IMG/VR virus record: IMGVR_UViG_3300045538_000441
Span: 1-25,075 of that record
Source of the DNA: a virus
Length of the DNA: 25,075 nt
Strand: one strand, 5' to 3'
Below, one piece after another: positions 2,046 through 13,453 of the stretch. The notes beneath the pieces were generated by a model. The model saw only the letters and a program-made list of their open reading frames with translations. It did no database searches and was not told the origin of the DNA. Within the stretch, counting starts at the first letter, position 1, and every line of letters starts with the position of its first letter. The translations under genes were made by a program, and so were the position numbers.

Positions 2046-3422
2046 ATGAATAACTCTTCTCTCCTCGAACCCCAAAGGGACCATGCCAAGAAACTCTTGG
2101 ATTCCATCTATTATAACGGTTACGCGGTCGACTTGTCTGACACGGGCACGGGCAAAACTTACTCAGCCTGTGCAATCGCAAAGGAACTGAATGTTCCCGT
2201 CGTGGTGGTCTGCCCGAAGGTGGTCATTCCCTCGTGGAAACGTGTCTTGGAATCCTTTGGTATCAAGGGTGCGTTGGTCATTAACTACGAGAAACTCTGC
2301 CGTGGCAATACCAAGTGGCTCACCTACGATAAGAAGGAACATAACAAAAAGAAAACTTGGGAATCCCTCGGTGTTCGCCTTCATTTCCCCGTCGGTTCGA
2401 TTGTCATCATGGATGAGGTTCATAAGTGTAAGGGATACACCAGCCTCAACAGTGACTTCCTCGTGTCATGTAAGAACCATGGTTACAAACTGTTGTTGAT
2501 GAGCGCCACGGCGGCCACCAATCCACTTGAGTTGAAAGCCCTCGGGTTCGTCTCCCACCTTCATACCGGCTATAACTTCTCTAAGTTCTGTAGGAGTGGT
2601 GGTGCGGAAGTGAATCGGTTTGGCGGTCTGACCATTGACATGAAATCCGATAAAGCTAAACGAGGAATGGCCGAGGTTCACAACTCTCTCTTCAATCTAC
2701 AGAAATCCGCCAGCCGCATGACGGTTGACATGTTCGATGGAATCTTTCCCGAGAACCACGTTGTCGCGGAGGTGTTCGACATGGGACAGAACACTGATAA
2801 AATTAATCGAGTCTATGAAATAATGCAGGCGGAATTGGATAAGCTCGATGCACGTGCTGAGAACTATTCCGGCCACATCTTCGCTATCATCATGGAAGCT
2901 CGTCGGCGGACTGAGTTGTTGAAGATTCCCGCGTTTGTCGAGACGATTGTCGATTTGTATGACGAGGGTATTTCTCCCGTCGTCTTCCTCAACTTCACCG
3001 ACAGTCTCATGTCGTTGGAGGAACGTTTGAAGAAGGATAGTCGATTGGATAAGATGATTTCGAAAATCGTCGGTGGTCAGAGTGACAAGGGCCGACAGTT
3101 CGACATTGACGAGTTCAACGCTGACCGCAAACGGATTATGTTGGTCAACCTCGCTGCGGGAAACTCGGGCGTGAACCTTCATGACTTGAACGGCAAACAT
3201 CCGAGACATTCGATGTTGGTCCCGTCATTCAGTGCCATCTCGTTGCTTCAGGCCTTGGGTCGGATTGCCCGTCAAGGTGGATTGACCAAGTGTCTCCAAA
3301 AGATAATCTTCTCCGCTAACACAATTGAGGAAGCAGCCTGTGAGAAAGTTCAGACACGTTTGGATAATCTCTCCACCTTGAATGACAATGACCTCAAGAG
3401 TGGCATCCGACTCTTCGCTTAA
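2046..3422 (+). CDS. Superfamily 2 DNA/RNA helicase (DEAD/SNF2-like)
   Basis: A 458-residue ATPase with the SF2 motif set in order: Walker A DTGTGKT (32-38), motif Ia around VVCPKVVIPSWKR (54-66), motif II DEVH (123-126), motif III SAT (153-155), and motif VI QALGRIARQG near 402-411 with the arginine-finger pattern. Both RecA-like lobes are therefore present. Substrate (DNA or RNA) cannot be decided; phage proteins of this type act in replication, recombination or transcript remodelling. An upstream extension to 2010 is the promoter. The start has no SD and should give a nearly leaderless mRNA. Its TAA abuts the ATG of the next small gene. Confidence 0.92.
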   Translation: MNNSSLLEPQRDHAKKLLDSIYYNGYAVDLSDTGTGKTYSACAIAKELNVPVVVVCPKVVIPSWKRVLESFGIKGALVINYEKLCRGNTKWLTYDKKEHNKKKTWESLGVRLHFPVGSIVIMDEVHKCKGYTSLNSDFLVSCKNHGYKLLLMSATAATNPLELKALGFVSHLHTGYNFSKFCRSGGAEVNRFGGLTIDMKSDKAKRGMAEVHNSLFNLQKSASRMTVDMFDGIFPENHVVAEVFDMGQNTDKINRVYEIMQAELDKLDARAENYSGHIFAIIMEARRRTELLKIPAFVETIVDLYDEGISPVVFLNFTDSLMSLEERLKKDSRLDKMISKIVGGQSDKGRQFDIDEFNADRKRIMLVNLAAGNSGVNLHDLNGKHPRHSMLVPSFSAISLLQALGRIARQGGLTKCLQKIIFSANTIEEAACEKVQTRLDNLSTLNDNDLKSGIRLFA

Positions 3423-3602
3423 ATGTCAGTGGAAATGCAATCTCGCAGGGCGTCGGTTGATTATACGTATGAGTTAGTAGACCTCTCAACGAATAGTCAA
3501 TCGATGATGACCGTTCGATCCGAACGCTATCACCACCGGGTTGTAATGGAGTTGGAGATTGGTGTCACGATACAGAACATGATTGACAATCCACATGAAT
3601 GA
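3423..3602 (+). CDS. Small hypothetical protein, 59 aa
   Basis: Directly abuts the helicase stop (TAAATG), so it is probably co-translated with it. It begins MSVEMQSRRASVDYTYELV and ends NPHE; no known domain. The stop overlaps the next start (ATGA, 3599-3602). A TTGACA near its end (3583-3588) has no fitting -10. Confidence 0.5.
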   Translation: MSVEMQSRRASVDYTYELVDLSTNSQSMMTVRSERYHHRVVMELEIGVTIQNMIDNPHE

Positions 3603-3787
3603 AAATGAAATCCAAAGAGGCTGAAATAAGAGATATATTGGAGGATGCAACGGCTGGTGCAACGTGGTGGGCAACGGCACCGGCGACCGCGAAATTAACG
3701 TGGGGTGGAACTGCGCATGTAACGTGGATACCGACGTCGGATGCAACGACGACGACGGCCACGAGGGAATTTGTTGACAATCTATAA
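3599..3787 (+). CDS. Small ATW-type protein
   Basis: 62 residues starting in the ATGA overlap. After a charged N-terminus it reads LEDATAGATWWATAPAT and then more Thr/Ala units, clearly the ATW repeat type with degenerate periodicity. The last codons (GTT GAC AAT CTA TAA) are also the -35 box and spacer of the next promoter. Confidence 0.65.
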   Translation: MKMKSKEAEIRDILEDATAGATWWATAPATAKLTWGGTAHVTWIPTSDATTTTATREFVDNL

Positions 3788-3801
3788 AAACAACGTAGAG
3801 T
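3774..3801 (+). promoter_or_regulatory. Promoter inside the 3' end of the preceding gene
   Basis: TTGACA (3774-3779), N16, TAGAGT (3796-3801). ATG is 8 nt downstream; the box lies in coding sequence. Confidence 0.8.
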
Positions 3802-3809
3802 TACTGAAC

Positions 3810-4100
3810 ATGAACACTGTCTCCAAAATCCTTCCCATTCGATATCTCGGATACTTCGACACCGTCCGCGGTCAATTTGACGTCAGCACCGAGGCTAACG
3901 TAATTGAACTCGGTGACGTCGATTTAATCAAATCCACCATCATAAATATTCTCTTCACAGACGGACCAAAGACGGTGGATTACCTCCTCGTGACCTTTGC
4001 TGACCAGATGTTTGTGATTGAACGTGATGGACCGGCTAGTTACTGTAAACGGTTGGTTTCCTACCATCCTCTCATGTCCAAGGTCAAACTGACCGCCTAA
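3810..4100 (+). CDS. Hypothetical phage protein, 96 aa
   Basis: Start set at ATG 3810, 8 nt after the -10; the longer open frame from 3741 would include the promoter. Mixed alpha/beta sequence starting MNTVSKILPIRYLGYFDTV. No catalytic motif or known family recognised. Followed after 27 nt by another small ATW-related gene without its own promoter. Confidence 0.75.
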   Translation: MNTVSKILPIRYLGYFDTVRGQFDVSTEANVIELGDVDLIKSTIINILFTDGPKTVDYLLVTFADQMFVIERDGPASYCKRLVSYHPLMSKVKLTA

Positions 4101-4127: not shown

Positions 4128-4325
4128 ATGATAATGATAACTACTGATGTGGATAAATGGAGAACTGCCTGGTGGGCGACTGAGGATGTTGCCGGTGACA
4201 TTGAGAACTCTATCTTCAACGCCTTATGTGGGCAGACGAGACTTGAAGTTCGTGAAATTCTCAATGATGTGAGAATAGATGATTTTACAAGAGATGTGGT
4301 CGAAGAATGTTTTGGAATTTTATGA
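4128..4325 (+). CDS. Small ATW-related acidic protein
   Basis: 65 residues (or 63 if it starts at the second ATG, 4134). Contains WRTAWWATEDVAGD, similar to the WWAT segment of the gene at 3599, then an acidic helical tail. Ends in an ATGA overlap with the first member of the tandem repeat cluster. Function unknown. Confidence 0.6.
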   Translation: MIMITTDVDKWRTAWWATEDVAGDIENSIFNALCGQTRLEVREILNDVRIDDFTRDVVEECFGIL

Positions 4326-4567
4326 ATAGATCGTTAACGGAAGGTACATTACGGGATGCCACGGATGATGCGACGTGGGATGCAACGAGGGATGCAACGA
4401 GGGATGCAACGTGGGATGCAACGGTGGTTGAAACGGCGGCTGCAACGAGGGAGGCAACGTGGGCTGCAACGGAGGTTGCAACGGCGGCTGCAACGAGGAA
4501 TGCAACGAGGGATGCAACGTGGGTTGCAACGAGGGATATGTTACGTGAAATAGTTCAAGAACTTTAA
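4322..4567 (+). CDS. ATWD-repeat protein 1 of the tandem cluster
   Basis: 81 residues. After a 12-residue head it is almost entirely a tetrapeptide repeat of the form Ala-Thr-(Trp/Arg/Glu/Val)-(Asp/Ala), e.g. DATRDATRDATWDAT, encoded by 12-nt units such as GCAACGAGGGAT and GCAACGTGGGAT. The tail is DMLREIVQEL, shared with the next copies. The start ATG 4322 overlaps the upstream stop (ATGA), which is preferred to ATG 4307. No signal peptide or membrane segment. Function unknown. The low-complexity DNA is also open in other frames, so the reading frame is supported by the conserved head and tail, not by openness alone. Confidence 0.75.
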   Translation: MNRSLTEGTLRDATDDATWDATRDATRDATWDATVVETAAATREATWAATEVATAAATRNATRDATWVATRDMLREIVQEL

Positions 4568-4571
4568 AGCT

Positions 4572-4763
4572 ATGATTTCAAATTTAAATAAAGTGGCGGA
4601 TTCAACGAGGGATGCAACGAGGGATGCAACGTGGGTTGCAACGTGGTATTCAACGATGGATGCAACGAGGAATGCAACGTGGGATGCAACGTGGGATTCA
4701 ACGTTAATTGCAACGAAGGATGCAACGTGGGATATGCTAAATGAAATAGTTCAAGAACTTTAA
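4572..4763 (+). CDS. ATWD-repeat protein 2
   Basis: 63 residues. Head MISNLNKVADST, about ten repeats (RDATRDATWVATWYST and similar), tail DMLNEIVQEL. Starts 4 nt after the previous stop, in the spacing AAAGCTATG that recurs between copies. It has no promoter of its own, so it is presumably read from upstream. Confidence 0.75.
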   Translation: MISNLNKVADSTRDATRDATWVATWYSTMDATRNATWDATWDSTLIATKDATWDMLNEIVQEL

Positions 4764-4767
4764 AGTT

Positions 4768-4962
4768 ATGACTTCAAAAACTTTAAATAAAGTGACGTCT
4801 GCAACGTGGGAGGCAACGTGGGATGCAACGAGGGATGCAACGTTGGATGCAACGAGGGATGCAACGAGGGATGCAACGAGGAATGCAACGATGGATGCAA
4901 CGATGGATGCAACGGCGGCTGCAACGAGGGATATGTTACGTGAAATAGTTCAAGAACTTTAA
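4768..4962 (+). CDS. ATWD-repeat protein 3
   Basis: 64 residues. Head MTSKTLNKV shared with copy 4, then SATWEATWDATRDAT repeats, then DMLREIVQEL. Separated from copy 2 by 4 nt. The near identity of head and tail to copies 2 and 4 at the DNA level points to recent tandem duplication. Confidence 0.75.
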   Translation: MTSKTLNKVTSATWEATWDATRDATLDATRDATRDATRNATMDATMDATAAATRDMLREIVQEL

Positions 4963-4966
4963 AACT

Positions 4967-5182
4967 ATGACTTCAAAAACTTTAAATAAAGTGGAGGTTG
5001 CAACGAGGGATGCAACGTTGGATGCAACGTGGGATGCAACGAGGGCTGCAACGAGGGCTGCAACGAGGGCTGCAACGTGGGCTGCAACGTGGGTTGCAAC
5101 GGTGGATGCAACGGGGGCTGCAACGGCGGATGCAATGAGGGATATGCTAGATGAAATAGTCGAAGAACTTCAAAGCCTATGA
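4967..5182 (+). CDS. ATWD-repeat protein 4
   Basis: 71 residues. Head MTSKTLNKV, then repeats with many Ala substitutions (RAATRAATRAATWAAT), then a variant tail DMLDEIVEELQSL. The TGA overlaps the next ATG (5179-5182). Confidence 0.75.
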   Translation: MTSKTLNKVEVATRDATLDATWDATRAATRAATRAATWAATWVATVDATGAATADAMRDMLDEIVEELQSL

Positions 5183-5310
5183 TTTCAAACATTCTAAATA
5201 AAGCGGAGAATGCAACGTGGTATGCAACGAGGGATTCAACGTGGGATGCAACGTGGAATGCAACGGATGATGCAACGGATGATGCGACGTGGGCTTTAGT
5301 TCATGATTGA
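5179..5310 (+). CDS. ATWD-repeat protein 5, truncated copy
   Basis: 43 residues beginning MISNILNKAENATWYATRDS and containing six to seven units, but lacking the DMLREIVQEL tail; it ends TWALVHD. Its TGA (5308-5310) falls inside the TTGACT -35 box of the next gene, so the missing tail may have been replaced when that promoter-gene module was placed here. Confidence 0.7.
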   Translation: MISNILNKAENATWYATRDSTWDATWNATDDATDDATWALVHD

Positions 5311-5334
5311 CTTTCTATAAAATGATGGTAAATT
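5307..5334 (+). promoter_or_regulatory. Promoter overlapping upstream stop codon
   Basis: TTGACT (5307-5312) contains the upstream TGA; N16; TAAATT (5329-5334), extended TGn. Only 6 nt to ATG: the predicted +1 is the A of ATG. Confidence 0.85.
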
Positions 5335-5340
5335 AGGACC

Positions 5341-5721
5341 ATGTTCAAAGCATCAGGCTACATCCAAGTTCAAGACGGTGTTCGGATCATCACGTCTCAC
5401 GACACGATTCGATACTATCACCGGCTTGTCGATGAATACTTCTTCCACTGCAAGAAGTTCCAGCTGCCGGCTCACGGTGCTCATATCACCCTAGTAAACC
5501 CGAAGATTCACAAGGTCAACTGGGCCAAGGCTCGGAAGTATATCGGTAAAGTCGTTGAATTTGAGGTATATCCCGATAAGGCTTATATCTCCTCTGTCAA
5601 CGTCTGGCTGCCGGTTCATTGTGACTTTGCAGACGATCTCAAGAAGGAGCTCGGCGTGGATGACGGAGGGAACTATTGGGGTCTTCACATGACCGTCTGC
5701 AATAAGAAATTTAACGGTTGA
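5341..5721 (+). CDS. 2H phosphoesterase (LigT / Acb1-like superfamily)
   Basis: 126 residues with the two H-x-T signatures of the 2H phosphoesterase superfamily: HGAHITLVNP (His48, Thr50) and GLHMTV (His116, Thr118), 68 residues apart, each placed to end a beta strand as in the family. 2H enzymes act on 2',3'-cyclic or 2'-5' phosphodiester bonds. Phage members serve in RNA repair or, as with T4 57B (Acb1), destroy cyclic nucleotide immune signals. Near a phage tRNA array both tRNA repair and anti-CBASS roles are possible; the sequence alone does not decide. The TGA lies in the next -35 box. Predicted fully leaderless. Confidence 0.8.
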   Translation: MFKASGYIQVQDGVRIITSHDTIRYYHRLVDEYFFHCKKFQLPAHGAHITLVNPKIHKVNWAKARKYIGKVVEFEVYPDKAYISSVNVWLPVHCDFADDLKKELGVDDGGNYWGLHMTVCNKKFNG

Positions 5722-6895: not shown

Positions 6896-6988
6896 GCTGT
6901 CGTGACCGGAATGGATGATCGGCTCGGGCTTCTATCCCGAATGAGATAACATCAAACACTATAGGTTCGAATCCTATCGACAGTACCA
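6896..6988 (+). tRNA. tRNA-Arg(TCT) with a 20-nt variable region
   Basis: Acceptor GCTGTCG/CGACAGT (G1-T72), A73 and encoded CCA. Anticodon arm TCGGG-CTTCTAT-CCCGA gives anticodon TCT. T-arm ATAGG-TTCGAAT-CCTAT. Between them are 20 nt instead of the usual 4-5 of an Arg tRNA, with a possible GAT/ATC mini-stem, so the shape is class II-like. Confidence 0.85.
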
Positions 6989-6992
6989 TAAA

Positions 6993-7066
6993 GCACCCTT
7001 GACAGATTGGCCATGTTCTTGCCTTCCAAGCAAGCGAAGCCGGTTCGATTCCGGCAGGGTGCTCCA
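6993..7066 (+). tRNA. tRNA-Gly(TCC)
   Basis: Acceptor GCACCCT/AGGGTGC, T73, CCA encoded. Anticodon arm CTTGC-CTTCCAA-GCAAG. T73 fits bacterial Gly tRNAs. Lies 4 nt after the Arg tRNA. Confidence 0.95.
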
Positions 7067-7140
7067 AATAATCTGTCGAATCGAACCAGTGTCTATCGGA
7101 CAACGCCATACGAAAACGTTGTAAAAAACTAAACATTTCA

Positions 7141-7168
7141 TTGACGAAAGTTAAATCTGATGTATAGT
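7141..7168 (+). promoter_or_regulatory. Internal tRNA promoter
   Basis: TTGACG (7141-7146), N16, TATAGT (7163-7168); the tRNA starts 15 nt downstream. Confidence 0.8.
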
Positions 7169-7182
7169 TATGGAAGTCGAAA

Positions 7183-7254
7183 GCGGACTTAGTGTAGTGT
7201 AACACGGGACCTTCCCAGGTTCAATCGGTGGTTCAACTCCATCAGCCCGCTCCA
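7183..7254 (+). tRNA. tRNA-Gly(CCC)-like, probably degenerate
   Basis: Acceptor GCGGACT/AGCCCGC with one A-C mismatch, T73, CCA. D-stem GTGT/ACAC closes a loop of only 6 nt without GG. The anticodon stem GGACC/GGTTC closes a 6-nt loop TTCCCA, giving CCC if read in the normal register. The short loops and mismatch suggest decay or a frame-altering tRNA. Confidence 0.65.
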
Positions 7255-7256
7255 CA

Positions 7257-7363
7257 GATGAGTGTAGTTCAGTGGTAGATCAAGGCACGTCTATGATGGT
7301 AAAAGACACCGCAAAAGCGACGATGGAAGCCTAGGCCGGTGGTTCAAATCCTCCCACTCATCC
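7257..7363 (+). tRNA. tRNA-like gene with about 40 extra nt in the anticodon region
   Basis: Perfect 7-bp acceptor GATGAGT/ACTCATC and a T-arm GGTGG-TTCAAAT-CCTCC (one mismatch). The D-arm looks like TAGTTCAGTGGTAGA. The part between D- and T-arm is about 40 nt too long and holds mini-hairpins (GTCT...AGAC, CGC-AAAA-GCG) enclosed by AGGC/GCCT. Anticodon cannot be assigned. It may contain an insertion or be a fusion of two tRNAs. Confidence 0.5.
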
Positions 7364-7375
7364 CGAAAGATTTAG

Positions 7376-7403
7376 TTGACGGAAAGAAAAAGTGGTGTAG
7401 AGT
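7376..7403 (+). promoter_or_regulatory. Internal tRNA promoter
   Basis: TTGACG (7376-7381), N16, TAGAGT (7398-7403); tRNA-Glu starts 34 nt later. Confidence 0.8.
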
Positions 7404-7436
7404 AGTTGAAGTTAGTTGATCTTTGTAGAACGTAAT

Positions 7437-7512
7437 AGTGTCGTCGTATAACGGTTAATACTCTCGGCTTTCAACCGAAGAACGGCGGGTTCAACTCCCC
7501 CCGACACTACCA
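7437..7512 (+). tRNA. tRNA-Glu(TTC)
   Basis: Acceptor AGTGTCG/CGACACT, A73, CCA. Anticodon loop CTTTCAA in a TCGG/CCGA stem. Canonical T-loop TTCAACT. Confidence 0.92.
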
Positions 7513-7520
7513 TTTAGAAT

Positions 7521-7596
7521 TGCGGGTTGGAGAAGTCCGGCCCATCTCGTTACGCTCATAACGTAAAGATCCTTGGTTCAAATCCAAGACCCGCTA
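7521..7596 (+). tRNA. tRNA-Met(CAT), initiator-like
   Basis: Anticodon arm TTACG-CTCATAA-CGTAA gives CAT. Two initiator traits are visible. Positions 1 and 72 do not pair (T1/T72, next to GCGGGT/ACCCGC). The D-stem GAGA/TCTC has A11-T24, the purine-pyrimidine order typical of bacterial initiators. The three G-C pairs usually at the base of the initiator anticodon loop are missing, so the assignment is not certain. CCA is not encoded. Confidence 0.8.
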
Positions 7597-7618
7597 CAGA
7601 ATTTTAACTCACGTTCCA

Positions 7619-7660
7619 TGTGAACGAGGAGCTAGGTGTGGATTTAGGTTCACACTTCAT
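7619..7660 (+). terminator. Possible terminator after the first tRNA segment
   Basis: TGTGAAC (7619-7625) pairs with GTTCACA (7648-7654) around a 22-nt loop, followed by cttcatttt. Weak U-tract. Confidence 0.4.
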
Positions 7661-7683
7661 TTTCAGAAAAAAAGAAAAAAGAT

Positions 7684-7711
7684 TTGACTTTTAGAAAACT
7701 CGGTCTATACT
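7684..7711 (+). promoter_or_regulatory. Promoter of a short transcript
   Basis: TTGACT (7684-7689), N16, TATACT (7706-7711). Followed by an 18-codon ORF and a terminator. Confidence 0.8.
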
Positions 7712-7721
7712 TATTGACGTA

Positions 7722-7778
7722 ATGATGACAACCAAACACAATTTTATTAAGCGCGATTGCCAAGGAGGCAACGGCTGA
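7722..7778 (+). CDS. Possible 18-residue microprotein or leader peptide
   Basis: ATG ATG start 10 nt after the -10, the spacing used by other genes here. The peptide reads MMTTKHNFIKRDCQGGNG. It is closely followed by a terminator hairpin, so the whole unit is about 130 nt and could instead be a small RNA. No homolog recognised. Confidence 0.4.
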   Translation: MMTTKHNFIKRDCQGGNG

Positions 7779-7803
7779 TTCTTCGTGTTTATACCGAATG
7801 TCG

Positions 7804-7840
7804 CCGTCAACCTCCGAAAGTAGTTGACGGTTTTTTGTTT
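7804..7840 (+). terminator. Strong intrinsic terminator
   Basis: CCGTCAAC (7804-7811) / GTTGACGG (7823-7830), 11-nt loop, then TTTTTTGTTT. Confidence 0.9.
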
Positions 7841-8000
7841 TGGGTTTTTAGTCTGTTTCCCTTTAAAAAATGTCAGACCGTAGAGGTAGAGTCTAAACGA
7901 CAGAACCGGGTTCTAAAAGAACTCACCAACGAAGGTCAAGCGTGACGACAGCACGAAATACTGTCGTTTAGTGTCACGTCATAATAGTTATTGGACAACT
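7841..8000 (+). other. Non-coding stretch before the HNH gene, with nested hairpin
   Basis: No credible gene. It contains a nested inverted repeat, CGACAG/CTGTCG (7946-7967) inside GTGA/TCAC-type outer pairs, directly before the HNH gene. Could be a terminator, a leader structure or the boundary of the mobile element. Confidence 0.4.
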
Positions 8001-8561
8001 ATGTATGACATTAAAGGAAAAAAATTTGGTAAATTAACCGTTGTAGAATTTTCACATTTAACAAAATGGAAGCATGCAACGTGGAAATGTAAGTGTGATT
8101 GTGGCAGAGAAATCTTCACTCAAACACGATTGTTAAGAGATGGAAGTAAAACAAACTGTGGGGCTTGGTGTGAACAACGAAATCTTGCGAAAAAACATCC
8201 TAACTGGAAAGGATTTGGAGAGATAAGTTTATCCCAGTTTCACCACATCAAAAAAGATGCAATTAGCAGGGGAATTCATTTTGACATAGGTATTGAATTT
8301 ATGTCAAACCTGTTTCTTAAACAAAATCGTAGATGTGCGTTATCTAATGTGGAGATTTCTATGGGAAGTTATAAGAAAAAAGTAAATGATAAAACCGCGT
8401 CATTGGATAGAATAGACAGCTCACTTGGTTACACTGTGGATAATGTTCAATGGGTTCATAAGGATATAAATAAAATGAAGTGGGATTTCAAAATGGACCG
8501 ATTTTTGGAGTTAGTGGAGAAAATTCACAATCATAAAAATCCCGCTGTAGCTCCAATGTAG
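8001..8561 (+). CDS. HNH-family homing endonuclease
   Basis: 186 residues from ATG 8001 (the frame is open to GTG 7971, but family members typically start with a D-x-x-G-KKFGKLTV segment as here: MYDIKGKKFGKLTVVE). A Cys cluster follows (WKCKCDCG, then NCGAWC). The C-terminal nuclease region reads LDRIDSSLGYTVDNVQWVHKDINKMK, the His-Me/HNH form common in phage homing endonucleases. The gene is AT-richer than its surroundings and its last codons lie inside tRNA-Phe, as expected for a mobile gene targeting a tRNA. The protein would cut an unoccupied tRNA locus; target unproven. Confidence 0.85.
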   Translation: MYDIKGKKFGKLTVVEFSHLTKWKHATWKCKCDCGREIFTQTRLLRDGSKTNCGAWCEQRNLAKKHPNWKGFGEISLSQFHHIKKDAISRGIHFDIGIEFMSNLFLKQNRRCALSNVEISMGSYKKKVNDKTASLDRIDSSLGYTVDNVQWVHKDINKMKWDFKMDRFLELVEKIHNHKNPAVAPM

Positions 8562-8615
8562 AGCGGTCGCCTGAAGAGCGACGCGTTGCCAGTTCAAGTC
8601 TGGCCGGCGGGACCA
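8541..8615 (+). tRNA. tRNA-Phe(GAA), overlapped by the HNH gene
   Basis: Acceptor CCCGCTG/CGGCGGG, A73, CCA. Anticodon arm GTCGC-CTGAAGA-GCGAC. T-loop TTCAAGT. The HNH stop codon TAG (8559-8561) is the TAG of its D-loop. Confidence 0.95.
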
Positions 8616-8681
8616 TTTTATCACGGAACGGGTTTGTTCCCGCTAGTCGTATGAGTATGGAGTCATGTTTGATAAATTTTT

Positions 8682-8755
8682 GGGGTATTAGTGTAATGGT
8701 TTAGCAACAGCATCCTGTCACGGTGCAAGAACGGGTTCGATTCCCGTATATCCCG
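8682..8755 (+). tRNA. tRNA-Asp(GTC)
   Basis: Acceptor GGGGTAT/ATATCCC, G73; anticodon arm GCATC-CTGTCAC-GGTGC. CCA not encoded. Confidence 0.93.
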
Positions 8756-8774
8756 CAGTTCAGTTTGATTTAAT

Positions 8775-8846
8775 TCCAGAGTGGGATAACGGTAGTCCTC
8801 CGTCCTGTTAAGACGAAAGGTGTTTGTTCGACTCAAACCTCTGGAG
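8775..8846 (+). tRNA. tRNA-Asn(GTT), copy 1
   Basis: Acceptor TCCAGAG/CTCTGGA, G73; anticodon loop CTGTTAA in CGTC/GACG; D-stem GGA/TCC; T-loop TTCGACT. CCA not encoded. Confidence 0.93.
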
Positions 8847-8852
8847 CATAAT

Positions 8853-8928
8853 GGTCACGTAATTCAATGGATAGAATGCTCGCCCGATTAGCGAGACGTT
8901 GTGGGTTCGACTCCTACCGTGAGGACCA
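8853..8928 (+). tRNA. tRNA-like, anticodon position GAT with C33
   Basis: Anticodon arm CTCGC-CCGATTA-GCGAG places GAT (Ile) at 34-36, but position 33 is C instead of U. The D-loop (TTCAATGGATAGAAT) is Arg-like. The acceptor GGTCACG/CGTGAGG has two G-G mismatches at the end, followed by ACCA. Probably degenerate or of changed identity. Confidence 0.6.
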
Positions 8929-8934
8929 AAAATT

Positions 8935-9117
8935 ATGAATTCACATGTTACAAAAGAATTGATTGACAAATACCCAAATCTTGAATTCCGAGGGAAATCA
9001 TATTTCAAGTCTGGTAAAAAATACATTAAAGCCAGATACAAAGACCCGGAGATAAGATTGATTTTTAAGAGACGATTTGAATACTCTTTTGAAGAAGATT
9101 TCTTTTGGTTCGTTTGA
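8935..9117 (+). CDS. Small AT-rich ORF between tRNAs, possible endonuclease remnant
   Basis: 60 residues, Lys/Phe/Tyr-rich (MNSHVTKELIDKYPNLEFRG; ends EEDFFWFV). It starts 6 nt after one tRNA and ends 2 nt before the next. Composition resembles the mobile genes here more than the phage core genes, but no motif is visible. Confidence 0.45.
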   Translation: MNSHVTKELIDKYPNLEFRGKSYFKSGKKYIKARYKDPEIRLIFKRRFEYSFEEDFFWFV

Positions 9118-9119
9118 AT

Positions 9120-9191
9120 GGCCCTATCGTCTATCGGATAAGACCACTTGTTCTCAACAAGAAAAGCTCAGTTCGATTCTGAGTAGGGCTA
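9120..9191 (+). tRNA. tRNA-Glu(CTC)
   Basis: Acceptor GGCCCTA/TAGGGCT, A73; anticodon loop TTCTCAA in CTTG/CAAG; T-loop TTCGATT. CCA not encoded. Confidence 0.9.
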
Positions 9192-9208
9192 CAGTTGGTT
9201 GTTGGAAT

Positions 9209-9284
9209 TCCGGTCTAGCTCAATTGGTAGAGCTTTCGGTTGTTACCCGAATGGTTTCAGGTTCGAGTCCTGAGTCCGGAGCCA
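9209..9284 (+). tRNA. tRNA-Asn(GTT), copy 2
   Basis: Acceptor TCCGGTC/GTCCGGA with one T-T mismatch, G73, CCA. Anticodon arm TTCGG-TTGTTAC-CCGAA. Canonical D-loop (CAATTGGTAG) and T-loop. Confidence 0.92.
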
Positions 9285-9291
9285 AATTTAT

Positions 9292-9363
9292 TCCCGAGTA
9301 ATGTTAAAGTAGCATGCGCGGCTGTTAACCGTGACGAGAGGGTGCATAGTCCTTCCTTGGGAG
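9292..9363 (+). tRNA. tRNA-Asn(GTT)-like, copy 3, with aberrant D- and T-loops
   Basis: Acceptor TCCCGAG/CTTGGGA and anticodon arm CGCGG-CTGTTAA-CCGTG are good. The D-loop (TTAAAGTAG) lacks GG, and the T-loop is TGCATAGT (8 nt) without TTC. The two normal elbow partners are thus missing together. Confidence 0.65.
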
Positions 9364-9373
9364 CCTTTAGTTT

Positions 9374-9449
9374 GCCTGTATAGTGAAATTGGAAATCACG
9401 TCACTCTACGAAAGTGAAATTCTTGGTTCGAGTCCAAGTAAAGGCACCA
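9374..9449 (+). tRNA. tRNA-Arg(ACG)
   Basis: Anticodon arm TCACT-CTACGAA-AGTGA; D-arm GTGA/TCAC with TTGG; T-arm CTTGG-TTCGAGT-CCAAG; acceptor GCCTGTA/TAAAGGC with one G-A mismatch; ACCA. A better acceptor match, GCCTTTA, lies 11 nt upstream (9363-9369), suggesting a small duplication or insertion. Confidence 0.88.
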
Positions 9450-9454
9450 GTGCG

Positions 9455-9544
9455 GAGAGAAGATAGACGTAAAACTTGATCAGTAGCCGCGCTACCTGAT
9501 GGTAGGGAGTCGTGGTTGGAACTATGTGAAATCCTTTAATCTCG
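9455..9544 (+). ncRNA. Structured RNA element, copy A
   Basis: Shares the paired-end motif of the seven-copy family: 5' AAG-AT-AGACGT and 3' GTGAA-AT-C-CTT, extended by GAGA/TCTC. Internal hairpin ATCAG...CTGAT with TAG/CTA. Lies between tRNA-Arg(ACG) and tRNA-Lys(TTT). Confidence 0.65.
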
Positions 9545-9573
9545 ATGCCCGATTTTTTAGTTGAGAATTTAAC

Positions 9574-9661
9574 GCTGTCGTTCCCTTAGTTGGCCGAAAG
9601 GACCGGACTTTTAATCCGGCGAGGTAACACTCCATCGTGGGTTCGACTCCCACCGACAGCA
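9574..9661 (+). tRNA. tRNA-Lys(TTT) with long variable arm, copy 1
   Basis: Acceptor GCTGTCG/CGACAGC, A73. Anticodon arm CCGGA-CTTTTAA-TCCGG. The variable region is 17 nt with a GAG/CTC stem, and the D-arm contains TTGGCCGA as in Ser/Leu-type tRNAs. T-arm GTGGG-TTCGACT-CCCAC. Class II shape with a Lys anticodon. Confidence 0.88.
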
Positions 9662-9674
9662 TCAGTTTATTTAC

Positions 9675-9751
9675 GGGTCGTTAACTCAAGTGGTTTAGAG
9701 TCCTGCCTCTTAAGCAGCGAGATGCTGGTTCAAATCCAGCACGACCCACCA
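9675..9751 (+). tRNA. tRNA-Lys(CTT), copy 1
   Basis: Acceptor GGGTCGT/ACGACCC, A73, CCA. Anticodon loop CTCTTAA in CTGC/GCAG. Normal 5-nt variable loop. Confidence 0.94.
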
Positions 9752-9772
9752 TTTAGCCATGTGAGATGAAGG

Positions 9773-9850
9773 TTATTATTGGTGTAAGAGCACATTTCCA
9801 CATTACGGAAAAGGATATGAACCCGGCACGGCCGGCCGAATCATAATAAT
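9773..9850 (+). pseudogene. tRNA-like remnant
   Basis: A tRNA-sized stretch closed by TTATTAT (9773-9779)/ATAATAA (9843-9849), with an anticodon-like arm TTTCC-ACATTAC-GGAAA. There is no normal D-loop or T-loop (a CCGGC-ACG-GCCGG hairpin sits where the T-arm should be). Not assignable to an isotype. Confidence 0.35.
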
Positions 9851-9876
9851 AAATGAAGTAAGTCGCATGGTAAGCA

Positions 9877-9937
9877 ACTGATAGACCTCGGCGCCGAGGG
9901 AACGTTATTACGTGAAATCCAGACCCCTTTTTGTTTT
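9877..9937 (+). ncRNA. Structured RNA element, copy B (short), with T-rich tail
   Basis: Carries CTG-AT-AGA (from 9878) and GTGAA-AT-C-CAG (to 9922) around a CCTCGG-CGCC-GAGG hairpin. The pyrimidine/T-rich tract after it (cccctttttgttttt) could make it a terminator ahead of the gene at 9958. Confidence 0.5.
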
Positions 9938-9957
9938 TGTATCATATTTATTGTTAT

Positions 9958-10647
9958 ATGACAAAAACCGAATTAAAAGAAGTGATAAAAAATGTGATTC
10001 TTGAAGAGTTAAAAAATGATCCATGTTGGAAAGGATATGAGATGGTAGGAATGAAGGATAAAAATGGTAAATCCGTTCCAAACTGTGTGCCAATAAAGGA
10101 AAATGAGGAGTCTAATAACTATATGTTTTGGCAGAATCTCAAAACCATAAATCACGCAACCAGTGAATTGTTAAAAATGGATGTCAACAAACTTGATATG
10201 CTTTTAGCCGATGGTCATGGATGGGCTTTGGATCACGTTTCAACTTCTGCTGACGACATAGAGGAAGTTTATCATTTCGTTGAGAGTAACATAAATGAGT
10301 CTCGTAAAGATTCGGAGGACGAACATACTATTAAAACAGATGAAGAACTACTTGAGTTTCTACACTTTTTAAAAGAAGATTCATTGATAAATGAGAATTT
10401 AAAAGAAGCCGAATATCGTGGACGAAAGGTTAAGTTAAACAAACCTATGCGTGGAGATGTAAAAAAGTTCAAGGTATTTGTCAAAGATCCAAAATCTGGA
10501 AATATAAAGAAGGTTAATTTTGGTGATCCTAAGATGAGAATCAAAAAAAATAACCCTAAACGAAGAAAATCTTTCAGAGCCAGATTTAACTGTGAAAATC
10601 CAGGTCCAAAGACTAAAGCTAGATATTGGAGCTGCCGAAAATGGTGA
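9958..10647 (+). CDS. Virion-type protein with prohead-core-like segments
   Basis: 229 residues. The segment NDPCWKGYEMVGMKDKNG (about 20-37) and the C-terminal block (KLNKPMRG..., FGDPKMRIKKNNPKRRKSF, ARYWSCRKW) resemble segments I know from head-core or scaffold-associated proteins of T4-like cyanophages and pelagiphages. The C-terminus is strongly basic. The role here is inferred: capsid assembly or DNA packaging support. It is an unusual inhabitant of a tRNA array, has AT-rich codons, no SD, and its TGA (10645-10647) lies inside tRNA-His, so the pair may have moved together. Confidence 0.7.
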   Translation: MTKTELKEVIKNVILEELKNDPCWKGYEMVGMKDKNGKSVPNCVPIKENEESNNYMFWQNLKTINHATSELLKMDVNKLDMLLADGHGWALDHVSTSADDIEEVYHFVESNINESRKDSEDEHTIKTDEELLEFLHFLKEDSLINENLKEAEYRGRKVKLNKPMRGDVKKFKVFVKDPKSGNIKKVNFGDPKMRIKKNNPKRRKSFRARFNCENPGPKTKARYWSCRKW

Positions 10648-10720
10648 TATTGTTGTAATGGTTTTAGCATCACTTCCTGTGAAGAAGTCGGAGCGGGTTC
10701 GATTCCCGTATATCACCCCA
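10643..10720 (+). tRNA. tRNA-His(GTG) with G-1
   Basis: G-1 (10643) pairs with C73, the His identity hallmark. Acceptor GTGATAT/ATATCAC, CCA encoded. Anticodon arm ACTTC-CTGTGAA-GAAGT. The first bases are shared with the last codons of the upstream gene. Confidence 0.93.
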
Positions 10721-10741
10721 ACAATTAAGTCAAAATAACCG

Positions 10742-10769
10742 TTGACGTTTTTAGAAAAAGTGGTAGTAT
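10742..10769 (+). promoter_or_regulatory. Internal tRNA promoter with +1 at the tRNA 5' end
   Basis: TTGACG (10742-10747), N16, TAGTAT (10764-10769), extended TGn. Only 7 nt separate it from the tRNA, so the primary transcript may begin at or next to the mature 5' end. Confidence 0.8.
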
Positions 10770-10776
10770 TGTCCTT

Positions 10777-10861
10777 GGTCAGACGAACTCATACTGATCA
10801 GTGAGTCGTGGACGATAAGTGATTATCACAAGTAAAACGGTTCGACTCCGTTGTTTGACCA
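10777..10861 (+). tRNA. tRNA-like gene, isotype not assignable
   Basis: Acceptor GGTCAGA/TTTGACC, A73, T-arm AACGG-TTCGACT-CCGTT and D-arm ACTCA/TGAGT are convincing. The anticodon region (10824-10843) forms GATAA-GTGA-TTATC with a 4-nt loop rather than 5 bp plus 7 nt. Has its own promoter. Confidence 0.6.
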
Positions 10862-10910
10862 TCTTAATTTTTTGAAAGGTTTGTAGTAATCTGCAGGTTG
10901 TTACAAACTG

Positions 10911-11033
10911 GTGGATAGACGGTTTTAGTCAAAACGCTCTTCTAAGTGGTAGGATGCCGGCAGAAAGCTGGTAAATGGTGGTTTCGATGCCCACCGCGTA
11001 GCGACGTTAAACCGGAACAACGTGAAATCCCAC
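10911..11033 (+). ncRNA. Structured RNA element, copy C
   Basis: Ends pair as GTGG-AT-AGACGG / CGTGAA-AT-C-CCAC. A second stem CGGTTT/AAACCG lies just inside, followed by GCCGGC...GCTGG and GGTGG...CCCACC hairpins. Lies between two tRNAs. Confidence 0.7.
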
Positions 11034-11046
11034 ACCCAAATTTAAT

Positions 11047-11123
11047 GGGCCAGTAGCATCAATGGTAATGCGTCTCACTTGCAATGAGAAATTTGTGGGT
11101 TCGACTCCCACCTGTGTCCACCA
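11047..11123 (+). tRNA. tRNA-Ala(TGC) with a bulged acceptor stem
   Basis: Anticodon arm TCTCA-CTTGCAA-TGAGA. T-arm GTGGG-TTCGACT-CCCAC. The acceptor GGGCCAG pairs with CTGTGTCC only if one T is bulged (8 nt opposite 7). A73, CCA. Confidence 0.85.
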
Positions 11124-11133
11124 TTTTTTGAAT

Positions 11134-11216
11134 GCCTAAGTCGCATAGCGGCGATTGCACCGTTTTTGTAAAGCGGAATACAAACACCGGGGGTTCGAGT
11201 CCCTCCTTAGGCTCCA
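11134..11216 (+). tRNA. tRNA-Thr(TGT), copy 1, 12-nt variable region
   Basis: Acceptor GCCTAAG/CTTAGGC, T73, CCA. Anticodon arm CCGTT-TTTGTAA-AGCGG. Variable region AATACAAACACC is longer than the usual 4-5 nt. T-loop TTCGAGT. Confidence 0.9.
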
Positions 11217-11303
11217 GTTTTATCGAATTTGCGTTTCAATCCGTGATTCTATACAGTGATATTCGACTGTGATAACGGGAAAAATAGAGCGCCCATTTCA
11301 GTT

Positions 11304-11380
11304 GGGTCGGTAGTTCAATTGGTTTAGATGCGCGCCTCTTAAGCGTTGCGATATGGGTTCGAGTCCCATCCGGCCCACCA
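11304..11380 (+). tRNA. tRNA-Lys(CTT), copy 2
   Basis: Acceptor GGGTCGG/CCGGCCC, A73, CCA. Anticodon loop CTCTTAA with stem GCGC/GCGT. T-arm ATGGG-TTCGAGT-CCCAT. Confidence 0.92.
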
Positions 11381-11388
11381 AAAATTTA

Positions 11389-11516
11389 GACGGATAGATG
11401 TGAAAGGCCCCATTACGGGATGAGTAACAGAATAGGTTGATAAACATTAGTAGTTGTGACCACCGCCCGGGCTGCAAAGGTGGAGACTACAAGATGTAAA
11501 CCAGTGAAATCCCGTC
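11389..11516 (+). ncRNA. Structured RNA element, copy D (long form)
   Basis: Ends GACGG-AT-AGATGTGAAAGG / GTGAA-AT-C-CCGTC. Inside: CCC...GGG hairpin, the word GATGAGTAA, then a long nested arm GGTT/AACC, ACAT/ATGT, GTAGT/ACTAC, CCACC/GGTGG topped by GGGCTGCAAA. The stems match those of copy E with compensatory base changes. Confidence 0.8.
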
Positions 11517-11529
11517 GGCCTTTCCAAAT

Positions 11530-11603
11530 TGGGATGTAGCATAATGTATTGCACCTCGCTTTGAACGAGAAGATTGGGGGTTCAAGTCCCTCCGTCCCAG
11601 CCA
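11530..11603 (+). tRNA. tRNA-Gln(TTG)
   Basis: Acceptor TGGGATG/CGTCCCA, G73, CCA. Anticodon loop CTTTGAA in CTCG/CGAG. Confidence 0.94.
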
Positions 11604-11608
11604 TCCAT

Positions 11609-11682
11609 AGTCCCTTAACATAACGGCCGTGTGCTCGTCTCTGAAACGAGTTAAATTGGTTCGACTCCAATAGGGACTGCCA
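11609..11682 (+). tRNA. tRNA-Gln(CTG)
   Basis: Acceptor AGTCCCT/AGGGACT, G73, CCA. Anticodon arm CTCGT-CTCTGAA-ACGAG. T-arm ATTGG-TTCGACT-CCAAT. 5 nt after tRNA-Gln(TTG). Confidence 0.94.
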
Positions 11683-11683
11683 C

Positions 11684-11711
11684 TTGACAATTAAAAAAAG
11701 TGTGGTAGTAT
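11684..11711 (+). promoter_or_regulatory. Promoter, leaderless type
   Basis: TTGACA (11684-11689), 1 nt after the CCA end of tRNA-Gln; N16; TAGTAT (11706-11711), extended TGn; ATG 6 nt later. Confidence 0.85.
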
Positions 11712-11717
11712 TTACTC

Positions 11718-11882
11718 ATGTTCGCATGTTGTGAAAACTGTTACAAGAAATACCTCACCAAAGACGGAGATGTTGATTGGGAGTTGTATTTGAAACTTGA
11801 ACCTGATCACAATCAAAACGAGGAAAATTCCACCGTCTGTAAGTGTTATTGCCACCGAGTTGATCTAACCGTTTTACATTGA
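11718..11882 (+). CDS. Small Cys-rich, probable zinc-binding protein
   Basis: 54 residues beginning MFACCENCYKKYLTKDG and ending VCKCYCHRVDLTVLH. Four to seven Cys plus a His (C4, C5, C8 and C41, C43, C45, H46) form a plausible zinc knuckle. It precedes a second small Cys protein (Lar-like). Its TGA is part of the next -35 box. Specific function unknown. Confidence 0.7.
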   Translation: MFACCENCYKKYLTKDGDVDWELYLKLEPDHNQNEENSTVCKCYCHRVDLTVLH

Positions 11883-11906
11883 CATTTAAAATAAATCTGA
11901 TATAGT
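11879..11906 (+). promoter_or_regulatory. Promoter overlapping upstream stop codon
   Basis: TTGACA (11879-11884) contains the upstream TGA; N16; TATAGT (11901-11906), extended TGn; ATG 10 nt later. Confidence 0.85.
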
Positions 11907-11916
11907 TATTCTACAA

Positions 11917-12120
11917 ATGAAATTGCACGTCGAAAAATGCCCGTTCTGTGGTTGTGATGAAGTTGAGTTCCAACGTGGAACCCCTGATAGGGAAGGTGTT
12001 CCCACACAAGCAATGTGTATTGATTGTGGTGCTTCTGGTCCAGGTGTTTATGAGAAAGACGACCGTAACTTTCTGAAGGCACTTGACGCGTGGAATGAAC
12101 GTATCATCCAAAGGCGTTAA
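11917..12120 (+). CDS. Lar-like zinc-ribbon protein (restriction alleviation family)
   Basis: 67 residues with the pattern of the Lar family: CPFCG at residues 8-12, CIDCGASGP at 34-42, and a C-terminal helix ALDAWNERI. Two CxxC pairs should bind one zinc. Characterised Lar proteins relieve type I restriction by modulating EcoKI-type methylation, but many phage members are annotated by fold alone, so anti-restriction is a hypothesis. Own promoter, no SD. Confidence 0.8.
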   Translation: MKLHVEKCPFCGCDEVEFQRGTPDREGVPTQAMCIDCGASGPGVYEKDDRNFLKALDAWNERIIQRR

Positions 12121-12121
12121 T

Positions 12122-12469
12122 ATGAAATCAAGAACCATAGTATTTAGTGTTCAATATAAGATTTTGTATAAATTTGGATCATTTCTGTCGTCCTCGTTGA
12201 GTTCTGATTCTCTTGAAGGATTACGGAAATTGATGGTTAACCGGGTCGAGAGCGCCAGAAATAACGACACCGAGGCAATTTTGTTTGAACCGATTGTAAA
12301 GACGATTATCTCAAAAACTGAAGCCCGGGGGTCTTTCGTTCAATTCGTTCCAAAGTTATCTACCGGCGTTTATTACGGAGAAGAAACGGTCAGTCAAGAA
12401 TGTTACAAACCCTTCAAGCATCGTGGGTCTGGACGGCAAGGCAACTCTCTGCAAAAGAGTTTCAAGTAG
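12122..12469 (+). CDS. Hypothetical protein whose 3' end runs into tRNA-Cys
   Basis: 115 residues starting 1 nt after the Lar-like stop (TAATATG). Begins MKSRTIVFSVQYKILYKFGS; no recognised domain. The last 17 codons lie within the tRNA-Cys gene (12418-12493) and the stop TAG is in the T-arm, so the natural C-terminus may have been replaced when the tRNA arrived. Confidence 0.6.
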   Translation: MKSRTIVFSVQYKILYKFGSFLSSSLSSDSLEGLRKLMVNRVESARNNDTEAILFEPIVKTIISKTEARGSFVQFVPKLSTGVYYGEETVSQECYKPFKHRGSGRQGNSLQKSFK

Positions 12470-12493
12470 GTTCGACTCCTACACGGTGCTCCA
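12418..12493 (+). tRNA. tRNA-Cys(GCA)
   Basis: Acceptor GCATCGT/ACGGTGC, T73, CCA. Anticodon arm ACTCT-CTGCAAA-AGAGT. T-arm GTAGG-TTCGACT-CCTAC. Overlaps the upstream coding frame by 52 nt. Confidence 0.93.
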
Positions 12494-12496
12494 TTT

Positions 12497-12679
12497 ATGA
12501 AAAGAAAATATCTGCACGTTGAAATCTCCCTTGGGTCGTTACATATTTATGCCGATGACCGGCGTTGGCCAGGAGACAAGTTGGTGACTCTTGATGAAAT
12601 TGACACTGAATGTAATCTTCACGACGTTGAAGATGGTGATGTGTGTTTCACCGTTCCGATAAACGAATTTCTTAATTGA
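12497..12679 (+). CDS. Small hypothetical protein, 60 aa
   Basis: Starts 3 nt after the tRNA-Cys CCA. Acidic, begins MKRKYLHVEISLGSLHIYAD. Probably read from upstream with the tRNA, which would require RNase processing to separate the two. Its TGA (12677-12679) is in the next -35 box. Confidence 0.65.
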   Translation: MKRKYLHVEISLGSLHIYADDRRWPGDKLVTLDEIDTECNLHDVEDGDVCFTVPINEFLN

Positions 12680-12703
12680 CTTTTTATCGTTTGGTGATAG
12701 AGT
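12676..12703 (+). promoter_or_regulatory. Promoter overlapping upstream stop codon
   Basis: TTGACT (12676-12681) with the upstream TGA; N16; TAGAGT (12698-12703), extended TGn; start codon GTG 8 nt later. Confidence 0.85.
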
Positions 12704-12711
12704 TGTCCTAC

Positions 12712-12894
12712 GTGAATGACACTGTTTATAGATCGAAAAATGGAACTCGGTGGAGATTCCTCTCAGAAGGTTACGGTGGGTTCGCTGGATTCAATGAATA
12801 CGTCCGAGTGAAGGATGGACACCGACTCTACCACAGAGTAGAGGAAATGGTGGAAGAATCAGAGTGGTTGAAGAATCGTAAGACAAAGAGTTAA
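12712..12894 (+). CDS. Small hypothetical protein, GTG start
   Basis: 60 residues. GTG 12712 is chosen because it lies 8 nt after the -10, where other genes have ATG; the frame upstream of it is the promoter. Reads (M)NDTVYRSKNGTRWRFLSEGY, a small beta-rich protein with a charged helical tail. A GTG on a leaderless mRNA would be unusual; a start at the internal ATG 12718 is out of frame. Confidence 0.65.
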   Translation: MNDTVYRSKNGTRWRFLSEGYGGFAGFNEYVRVKDGHRLYHRVEEMVEESEWLKNRKTKS

Positions 12895-12895
12895 T

Positions 12896-13445: not shown

Positions 13446-13453
13446 TTTAGATT

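What the first reader, a model, noticed from the sequence alone, without database searches (positions are those of the whole stretch)
4322..5310. Tandem genes made of Ala-Thr-Trp/Arg-Asp tetrapeptide repeats
Five consecutive small genes consist almost only of a 4-residue, 12-bp repeat with conserved heads (MTSKTLNKV) and tails (DMLREIVQEL). The DNA is duplicated at both the 12-bp and the 200-bp level. The regular Trp/Arg every fourth position on an Ala-Thr-x-Asp frame is not a repeat class I know. It could form an amphipathic helix or beta stack with a ladder of Trp/Arg.
Basis: partly seen in the sequence, partly recalled or inferred. Interest (0 to 1): 0.82.

Follow-up and report, generated by a model that had tools for sequence, protein, structure and literature searches.

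The report
Hypervariable four-residue-repeat phage minigenes
A phage carries a row of tiny genes made of a repeated four-amino-acid unit in which two residues stay fixed and two are constantly varied, a pattern that recurs across many phages and resembles a protein one mycobacterial phage retunes to beat rival prophage defences.

Summary
In detail: five tandem + strand ORFs (4322-5310) are arrays of a 12-bp/4-residue unit, A-T-x-x. They are very probably translated. Three related phage contigs (L028, L030, L026) carry array genes in the same frame, most with EFI-D-type tails, and unrelated contigs (L100, L109) carry tandem minigenes of the same layout built on Q-L-x-x. In most relatives the same kind of array (AT, QL, SL, AV or QV as constant pair) sits inside one phage protein family, between the N part and the DUF6745 domain. 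Over 83 arrays and 2,092 units, third codon positions are almost fixed, while the residue-changing positions of residues 3 and 4 vary (pN>pS in 80 of 83). Four M. abscessus-prophage-type copies have flanks at least 99.8% identical but arrays of 46, 62, at least 21 and 19 units, built from one 3x2 grid of unit alleles. The nearest studied case, mycobacteriophage Tweety gp54 (AAxx repeats), is a counter-defence protein; its defence-escape mutants change repeat number. Best reading: the window genes are a free-standing repertoire of tunable, probably helical, counter-defence peptides. Coding and hypervariability are well supported; the function is inferred by analogy. New variant of a known kind.

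The parts
4322..4567 (+). Array minigene 1 (81 aa), ATxx units, tail RDMLREIVQEL; ATGA overlap with the preceding ORF
4572..4763 (+). Array minigene 2 (63 aa), head MISNLNKV, tail DMLNEIVQEL
4768..4962 (+). Array minigene 3 (64 aa), head MTSKTLNKV, tail DMLREIVQEL; AlphaFold2 single helix, mean pLDDT 94.8
4967..5182 (+). Array minigene 4 (71 aa), head MTSKTLNKV, tail DMLDEIVEELQSL
5179..5310 (+). Array minigene 5 (43 aa), ATGA overlap with minigene 4, lacks the common tail; its stop lies inside the -35-like TTGAC of the next gene
3599..3787 (+). Sixth, eroded array ORF (62 aa), Thr mostly every fourth residue, tail ATREFVDNL similar to the EFIED tails of the relatives
4128..4325 (+). Small ORF (65 aa) before the array cluster; tail DDFTRDVVEECFGIL resembles L028 11841-12032 (DDFMRDALEECVED); no array
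3774..3812 (+). Promoter-like TTGACAATCTATAAAAACAACGTAGAGTTACTGAACATG ahead of 3810-4100, the nearest candidate promoter upstream of the array cluster
5307..5343 (+). Promoter-like TTGACTTTCTATAAAATGATGGTAAATTAGGACCATG that ends the array cluster and precedes gene 5341-5721
5341..5721 (+). Conserved 126-aa gene used as synteny anchor (78% identical in L028 and L026, 90% in L030)

Best explanation
Each minigene encodes a short, probably helical protein made of A-T-x-x units. Ala-Thr is the fixed scaffold and residues 3 and 4 are a repeat-variable pair. Arrays grow, shrink and reshuffle by whole 12-bp units, and selection keeps diversity at residues 3 and 4 while the rest of the unit stays uniform. 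Several paralogues with different arrays lie at the ends of transcription units, giving the phage a small repertoire. The most likely role is counter-defence: the array binds a fast-evolving host or prophage defence component and blocks its activation, and gaining, losing or swapping units retunes the target, as reported for Tweety gp54. In most phages the same kind of array is built into a DUF6745 protein; in this phage group DUF6745 has no array and arrays are made as separate proteins, which may act with it. Shown here: frame, arrays, hypervariability, co-location. Inferred: helix in solution, selection as the cause, partner, counter-defence.
For: Frame and tails conserved among related phages. 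Same tandem head-array-tail layout in unrelated contigs with QL units. Residue-changing positions vary and third positions do not: mean minor-allele fraction at unit positions 3/6/9/12 = .008/.019/.030/.032 against 7/8/11 = .520/.151/.352 over 83 arrays; pN>pS in 80 of 83; minimum extra nucleotide states 310 at positions 7, 8, 11 against 58 at third positions over 77 fused arrays in 16 constant-codon classes. Near-identical flanks with different arrays. W, R and G all present in 49 of 50 QL arrays, while Arg is AGG or CGG but both in only 4 of 50. Tweety gp54: same unit design and DNA pattern and a reported counter-defence role in which escape mutants change repeat number (two reviews, passages). 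Array-less DUF6745 plus free arrays in the L028 and L030 records.
Against: No functional data for any of these proteins. Tweety gp54 is not a DUF6745 protein (no Pfam hit; phrog_3416; absent from the local HMM hits), so resemblance is in the array only. L040 and L041 carry array-less DUF6745 but no array gene in their whole contigs. PADLOC finds nothing relevant in the array or DUF6745 proteins beyond one weak partial match. pN/pS among repeat units is not a formal dN/dS: units are copied, so few mutation events underlie many units, and arrays share ancestry. Three arrays go the other way (L082, L093, L100).
Confidence: 0.45

Rival explanations
1. The arrays are length-adjustable helical spacers or scaffolds (a ruler, or an oligomerisation rod) without a counter-defence role; only length and general chemistry matter.
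For: Single-helix prediction; array lies between two domains in DUF6745 proteins; repeat number varies widely (up to 94 units); the review on Tweety suggests spacing of N and C domains as the tuned property.
Against: Length alone does not explain W, R and G kept together in 49 of 50 QL arrays, or variation concentrated in residues 3 and 4. Free minigenes have no domains to space.
Confidence: 0.2
2. Slippage by-product: short selfish or decaying ORFs that expand by replication slippage, with variation tolerated rather than selected.
For: Some copies are eroded (window 3599-3787; 5179-5310 lacks the tail); presence varies between related phages at the same slots.
Against: Neutral slippage predicts synonymous change at least as frequent as amino-acid change; pS is 0 at residues 3-4 in 55 of 83 arrays with mean pN about 0.3. 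Identical neighbours are not enriched (mean z -0.01). Recurrence in three tandem minigene clusters (window, L100, L109) and in DUF6745 proteins.
Confidence: 0.15
3. The unit order is a recognition code for self/non-self between phages (superinfection exclusion or prophage identity), not an inhibitor of defence.
For: Six unit alleles in varied order give different arrays in prophages with near-identical flanks; Tweety gp54 acts in prophage-phage conflict.
Against: No membrane or surface features were looked for; no evidence of homotypic recognition.
Confidence: 0.15
4. Non-coding satellite DNA, binding-site array or RNA element; the open frames are a by-product of a 12-bp period.
For: 12-bp repeats stay open in several frames, so openness alone proves nothing.
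Against: The frame is fixed by flanking domains in 45 ORFs; constant codons differ between phages (16 classes) while the peptide pattern stays; heads, tails and overlapping starts; all 51 matches in the L028 record are on one strand.
Confidence: 0.05

Closest known systems
Mycobacteriophage Tweety gp54 (and Che8 gp57, PMC gp51): tetrapeptide-repeat counter-defence protein
   Same: 12-bp/4-residue units, two constant residues (AA) plus two variable ones, third codon positions invariant, variation at first/second positions (PMC2884959 passages; DNA checked). Repeat number changes in defence-escape mutants (PMC9262239 and PMC8549241 passages).
   Different: Constant pair AA, not AT; array is inside a 374-aa protein with unique N and C regions (phrog_3416); one gene, not a tandem set; no sequence homology outside the array detected.
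DUF6745 (PF20530) phage and actinobacterial proteins with tetrapeptide arrays (e.g. Mycobacterium phage prophiGD102-1 gp38, MW202476.1 hypothetical protein)
   Same: Arrays of AT, QL, SL, AV or QV units with the same variable positions; array-less members occur in the L028 and L030 records beside free array genes.
   Different: The window minigenes carry no DUF6745 domain; they are array plus short head and tail only.
Diversity-generating retroelement variable regions (recalled class)
   Same: Variation at first/second codon positions with the third position held.
   Different: No reverse transcriptase (PF00078) in the window or in 12 related records; variation is arranged in short tandem units that change in number and order.
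Bordetella phage BMP-1 bbp36 VR2 repeats (as cited in PMC2884959)
   Same: Variable-number coding repeat in a phage gene.
   Different: 24-bp element with 5-bp spacers; not compared here by sequence.

Membership tests
Tweety gp54-type tetrapeptide counter-defence protein | Tandem 4-residue units with two invariant and two variable residues | tested here: met
   Window: Thr codon ACG in 51 and ACC in 1 of 52 units; Ala in 50 of 52
Tweety gp54-type tetrapeptide counter-defence protein | Invariant third codon positions with variation at first/second positions | tested here: met
   Window minor-allele fractions: pos 7 .59, 8 .31, 11 .30 against third positions .06.00.07.04; Tweety the same
Tweety gp54-type tetrapeptide counter-defence protein | Unique N and C regions related to gp54 (phrog_3416) | tested here: not met
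   Window copies match phrog_18326 and phrog_8332 best, not phrog_3416; gp54 matches phrog_3416
Tweety gp54-type tetrapeptide counter-defence protein | Counter-defence activity retuned by repeat number | not testable with these tools
   Needs phage genetics; only reviews read
DUF6745 (PF20530) | Match to the Pfam domain | tested here: not met
   No PF20530 hit for the five genes; none in the window by whole-record search (its control genomes also did not ring)
DUF6745 (PF20530) | Tetrapeptide array between N part and DUF6745 domain, in relatives | tested here: met
   45 ORFs with N part, array and C part in that order, two of them duplicate loci; PF20530 above cut-off in 4 of 6 array proteins and all 5 array DUF6745 proteins
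Diversity-generating retroelement target | Reverse transcriptase in the element | tested here: not met
   0 of 12 related records, 0 of 1 own record; records may be fragments

The most novel reading that the evidence does not exclude
Tetrapeptide arrays with a repeat-variable residue pair are a widespread, previously unrecognised protein-diversification system of phages: a fixed two-residue scaffold plus a small alphabet at residues 3 and 4 (for QL arrays W/R/G x D/G), recombined by whole units so fast that otherwise near-identical prophages carry unrelated arrays. They are deployed inside DUF6745 proteins, inside Tweety gp54-like proteins and as tandem free-standing minigenes, as a specificity code in phage-defence conflict.
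Probability: 0.35. Interest if true: 0.92.

Novelty: new variant of a known kind. Interest (0 to 1): 0.78.

Why it matters
If right, phages have a general, reverse-transcriptase-free way to make hypervariable proteins, and a family with no described function (DUF6745) plus many ignored low-complexity minigenes become testable counter-defence candidates. The single studied example (Tweety gp54) would turn from an oddity into one member of a broad class, and the six-allele unit grid makes a specificity code directly testable.

Tried and rejected
Phage database searches with the array itself gave no match, nor did the whole window or the helicase; the low-complexity filter is on, so the array result says little. 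Fold searches of the DUF6745 model gave nothing (no Foldseek match at E<=0.001; no chain at Z>=2), and the model is low-confidence in the array. No sequence match in solved structures. Reverse-transcriptase diversification: none found. DNA mimicry: net charge per unit is only -0.27 on average, with many Arg. 'Identical neighbours avoided': not seen; block duplications of 4 units are enriched (z>3) in 15 of 43 runs. A strict pairing of array-less DUF6745 with free arrays: contradicted by L040/L041. Actinomycetota: DUF6745 in 3 of 149 genomes, of which L065 has an AV array. Relatives in genome contigs, with an array-bearing DUF6745 query: 3 loci, of which only L033 is a DUF6745 protein.

Literature: 0 papers hold DUF6745; 0 hold any of twelve array strings; 0 hold 'tetrapeptide repeat' + 'counter-defense' + 'phage'. 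The primary paper behind the Tweety counter-defence work is not held (its identity is recalled), so that claim rests on passages of two reviews.

Rows dropped before the 83-array count: L045, L050, L055, L066, L068, L031, L039, L042, L110, L111, L072 (duplicates of other loci, by contig or sequence) and L023 (array and DUF6745 part in different ORFs); arrays with fewer than 6 usable units (L030 among them); and L015, L011, L016, L034, L035 and the second array of L026, which were not in the domain-hit list or not entered. The loci (L125-L145) were not analysed; most are contigs already held.

Full report
What is there. Window 4322-5310 (+) holds five tandem ORFs of 81, 63, 64, 71 and 43 aa that are almost entirely 12-bp units encoding Ala-Thr-x-x. 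Minigene 1 overlaps the preceding ORF by ATGA at 4322, minigenes 2-4 start 4 nt after the previous stop, minigene 5 overlaps minigene 4 by ATGA at 5179. A sixth, eroded copy lies at 3599-3787. The record is a 25,075-base IMG/VR virus record with 29 tRNA predictions. No annotated phage in the INPHARED collection matches the window by megablast.

Translation. The 12-bp period keeps several frames open, so openness is not evidence. Comparison is. L028 (73.6-kb record, helicase 93% identical), L030 and L026 are related phages by the 126-aa anchor gene (78-90% identical). L028 has six array genes (506-697, 3418-3546, 9270-9494, 9527-9628, 11374-11478, 12039-12293), all ending EFI[EA]D; L030 has one (3717-3866, tail REFIVD); L026 has one cut by the contig start (tail REIIDD) and a second, degenerate one at 7236-7532 without such a tail. 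Slots between conserved genes differ: between the 117-aa gene and the 95-aa gene L028 and L030 have arrays while the window has a non-array ORF (1489-1671); between the 96-aa and 126-aa genes the window has five, L028 one and L030 none. So array genes are gained, lost and copied between slots; two L028 arrays 2.8 kb apart share 108 identical bases. Several array genes (window 5310; L028 3546, 9494, 9628, 11478, 12293; L030 3866) end with a TGA that lies inside the TTGAC of the next gene's promoter-like sequence, so they sit at the ends of transcription units. L018 has two non-adjacent AT minigenes. L100 and L109 (with near-identical L110) have tandem sets of free QLxx minigenes with their own heads (M[TN]KRL, MKKRK) and tails (REEFNND, YKGIKYYEE[TA]) and overlapping starts: the same architecture with another constant pair.

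Same kind of array inside a protein family. Of 19 loci from the first viral scan most encode the array within a larger protein, up to 590 aa or more where not cut by a contig end. Pfam names the C part DUF6745 (PF20530): above cut-off in 4 of the 6 array proteins of this kind submitted (L025 below cut-off, L022 none at E<=0.1), and in all 5 array DUF6745 proteins. With HMMs built here from seeds of 14 proteins, 45 ORFs (two of them duplicate loci) show N part, array and C part in that order by my reading of the table. The constant pair differs: AT, QL, SL (MW202476.1), AV (L048, L065), QV (Nocardia farcinica plasmid L062). Array-less members occur in Microcystis phages (MaMV-CH01, Ma-LMM01), Streptomyces (L060), an Actinomycetota genome (L063), L040/L041, and in the L028 and L030 phages themselves. 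Thus in the window's phage group DUF6745 has no array and arrays are separate genes; the window fragment does not reach the position of that gene, and a whole-record search found no PF20530 in it (whose control genomes did not ring either).

Codon-position pattern. Over 83 arrays and 2,092 units the mean minor-allele fraction at unit positions 1-12 is 0, 0.008.001, 0.019.520.151.030.049.352.032 (positions 1, 2, 4, 5 are near zero by construction because units were chosen by their constant residues). pN exceeds pS at residues 3-4 in 80 of 83 arrays; pS there is zero in 55; no synonymous variation at all in 48. Exceptions are L082, L093 and L100. The window alone: pN .397, pS .071 (54 units). 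Counting only distinct nucleotide states (a lower bound on events) in 77 fused arrays: 310 at positions 7, 8, 11 and 58 at the four third positions, over 16 classes of constant codons. The only other coding repeat tried, the 66-bp repeat of window gene 24562-24930 (3 units), gives pS .121 and pN .101, i.e. no such excess. In 50 QL arrays W, R and G are all present in 49, and Arg is encoded by AGG or by CGG but by both in only 4: Arg units within an array are copies, not repeated independent mutations, and the amino acid rather than the nucleotide appears to be what is kept. Pham et al. 2007 reported the same pattern for Tweety gp54 and called it consistent with selection for variation (PMC2884959, passages; verified on 48 units of the DNA).

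Speed. L049 and L050, from two metagenomes, differ over 15,709 aligned bases only by 24 bases, two units, inside the array (the alignment settings showed one mismatch and two gaps for the same pair). prophiGD102-1 gp38 (L059) and IMG/VR loci L073, L075, L076 have N flanks 100% identical over 339 bp (L059, L073, L076; L075 is cut at the array) and C flanks 99.8-100% identical over 642 bp, yet arrays of 46, 62, at least 21 and 19 units. Their 148 units comprise six alleles, CAG CTC [CGT]GG G[AG]C, plus a terminal variant. Unit order in L059 and L073 is no more alike than shuffled (global z 1.2, local z -1.2), whereas L059-L075 (z 3.8 and 5.5) and L075-L076 (3.9, 4.4) share blocks. L088/L091 repeat this with a 99.3% identical C flank (global z 1.6). 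Caveat: short-read assembly of 12-bp arrays can go wrong, and many QL arrays lie at contig ends. Identical neighbouring units are not enriched (mean z -0.01), while four-unit blocks are in 15 of 43 runs: block duplication and deletion plus shuffling.

Structure. AlphaFold2 on a 14-row alignment gives one helix (3-63, mean pLDDT 94.8). In the full L014 protein the array is helical at low confidence (block means about 36-49 over most of the array), with the N part mostly 83-91 and much of the DUF6745 part 74-91.

Function. Two reviews (passages read) report that Tweety gp54 antagonises the Phrann gp29/gp30 and MichelleMyBell prophage defences when its array has been altered, escape mutants having more or fewer repeats. 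The window genes share the array design but not the gp54 flanks, so I do not file them as gp54 homologues; I propose that they work like it. Confidence about 0.9 that the arrays are translated and hypervariable (my estimate), 0.45 that counter-defence is the role.

Novelty. AAxx arrays and their codon pattern are in print for Tweety. Not found in the held library: DUF6745 by name, the AT/QL/SL/AA array strings. The free-standing tandem minigenes, the spread across DUF6745 proteins with interchangeable constant pairs, and the identical-flank/different-array cases appear unreported as far as these searches go.

Noticed in passing
window 1143, 1668, 2010, 3774, 5307, 14235 and others: Promoter-like TTGAC(T/A)TTnTATAAAA...TAnnnT with an ATG mostly 34-38 bases after the TTGAC start; the transcript would start at or just before the ATG, suggesting leaderless or near-leaderless mRNAs. 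Same spacing in L028 and L030.
   Followed up: partly
window 24562-24933: Gene with GDKYWYLNGKxHREDGPA repeats (66-69 bp) that weakly matches DUF6745 (E 7.5e-5, below the cut-off).
   Followed up: partly
window 6896-20077: 29 tRNA predictions, mostly on +, interleaved with HNH-like and GIY-YIG-like endonuclease ORFs by eye (7971-8561, 19250-19936 -, 21353-22165 -).
   Followed up: no
window 20204-20908 (-): Clear GP88 (PF17338) protein, E 7.9e-51.
   Followed up: no
L037 2069-3604 (+) and a - strand ORF listed as 7102-8439 (reverse-strand coordinates): Two large ORFs in the related 73.6-kb phage record that look, from recall, like DUF1501-type proteins common in Planctomycetes; possibly host-derived and a hint to the host.
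   Followed up: no
L060 (Streptomyces cadmiisoli plasmid): Array-less DUF6745 gene two genes from a gene annotated STM4015 family protein.
   Followed up: no
L097, - strand ORF listed as 3126: Reverse-strand open frame near a QL-array gene reads as AATK/AATQ repeats; a reminder that 12-bp arrays stay open in several frames.
   Followed up: no
L109-L111 around L109 3413-3489: Near-identical contigs differ strongly within one array minigene close to the end of contig L111; real polymorphism or contig-end error.
   Followed up: no
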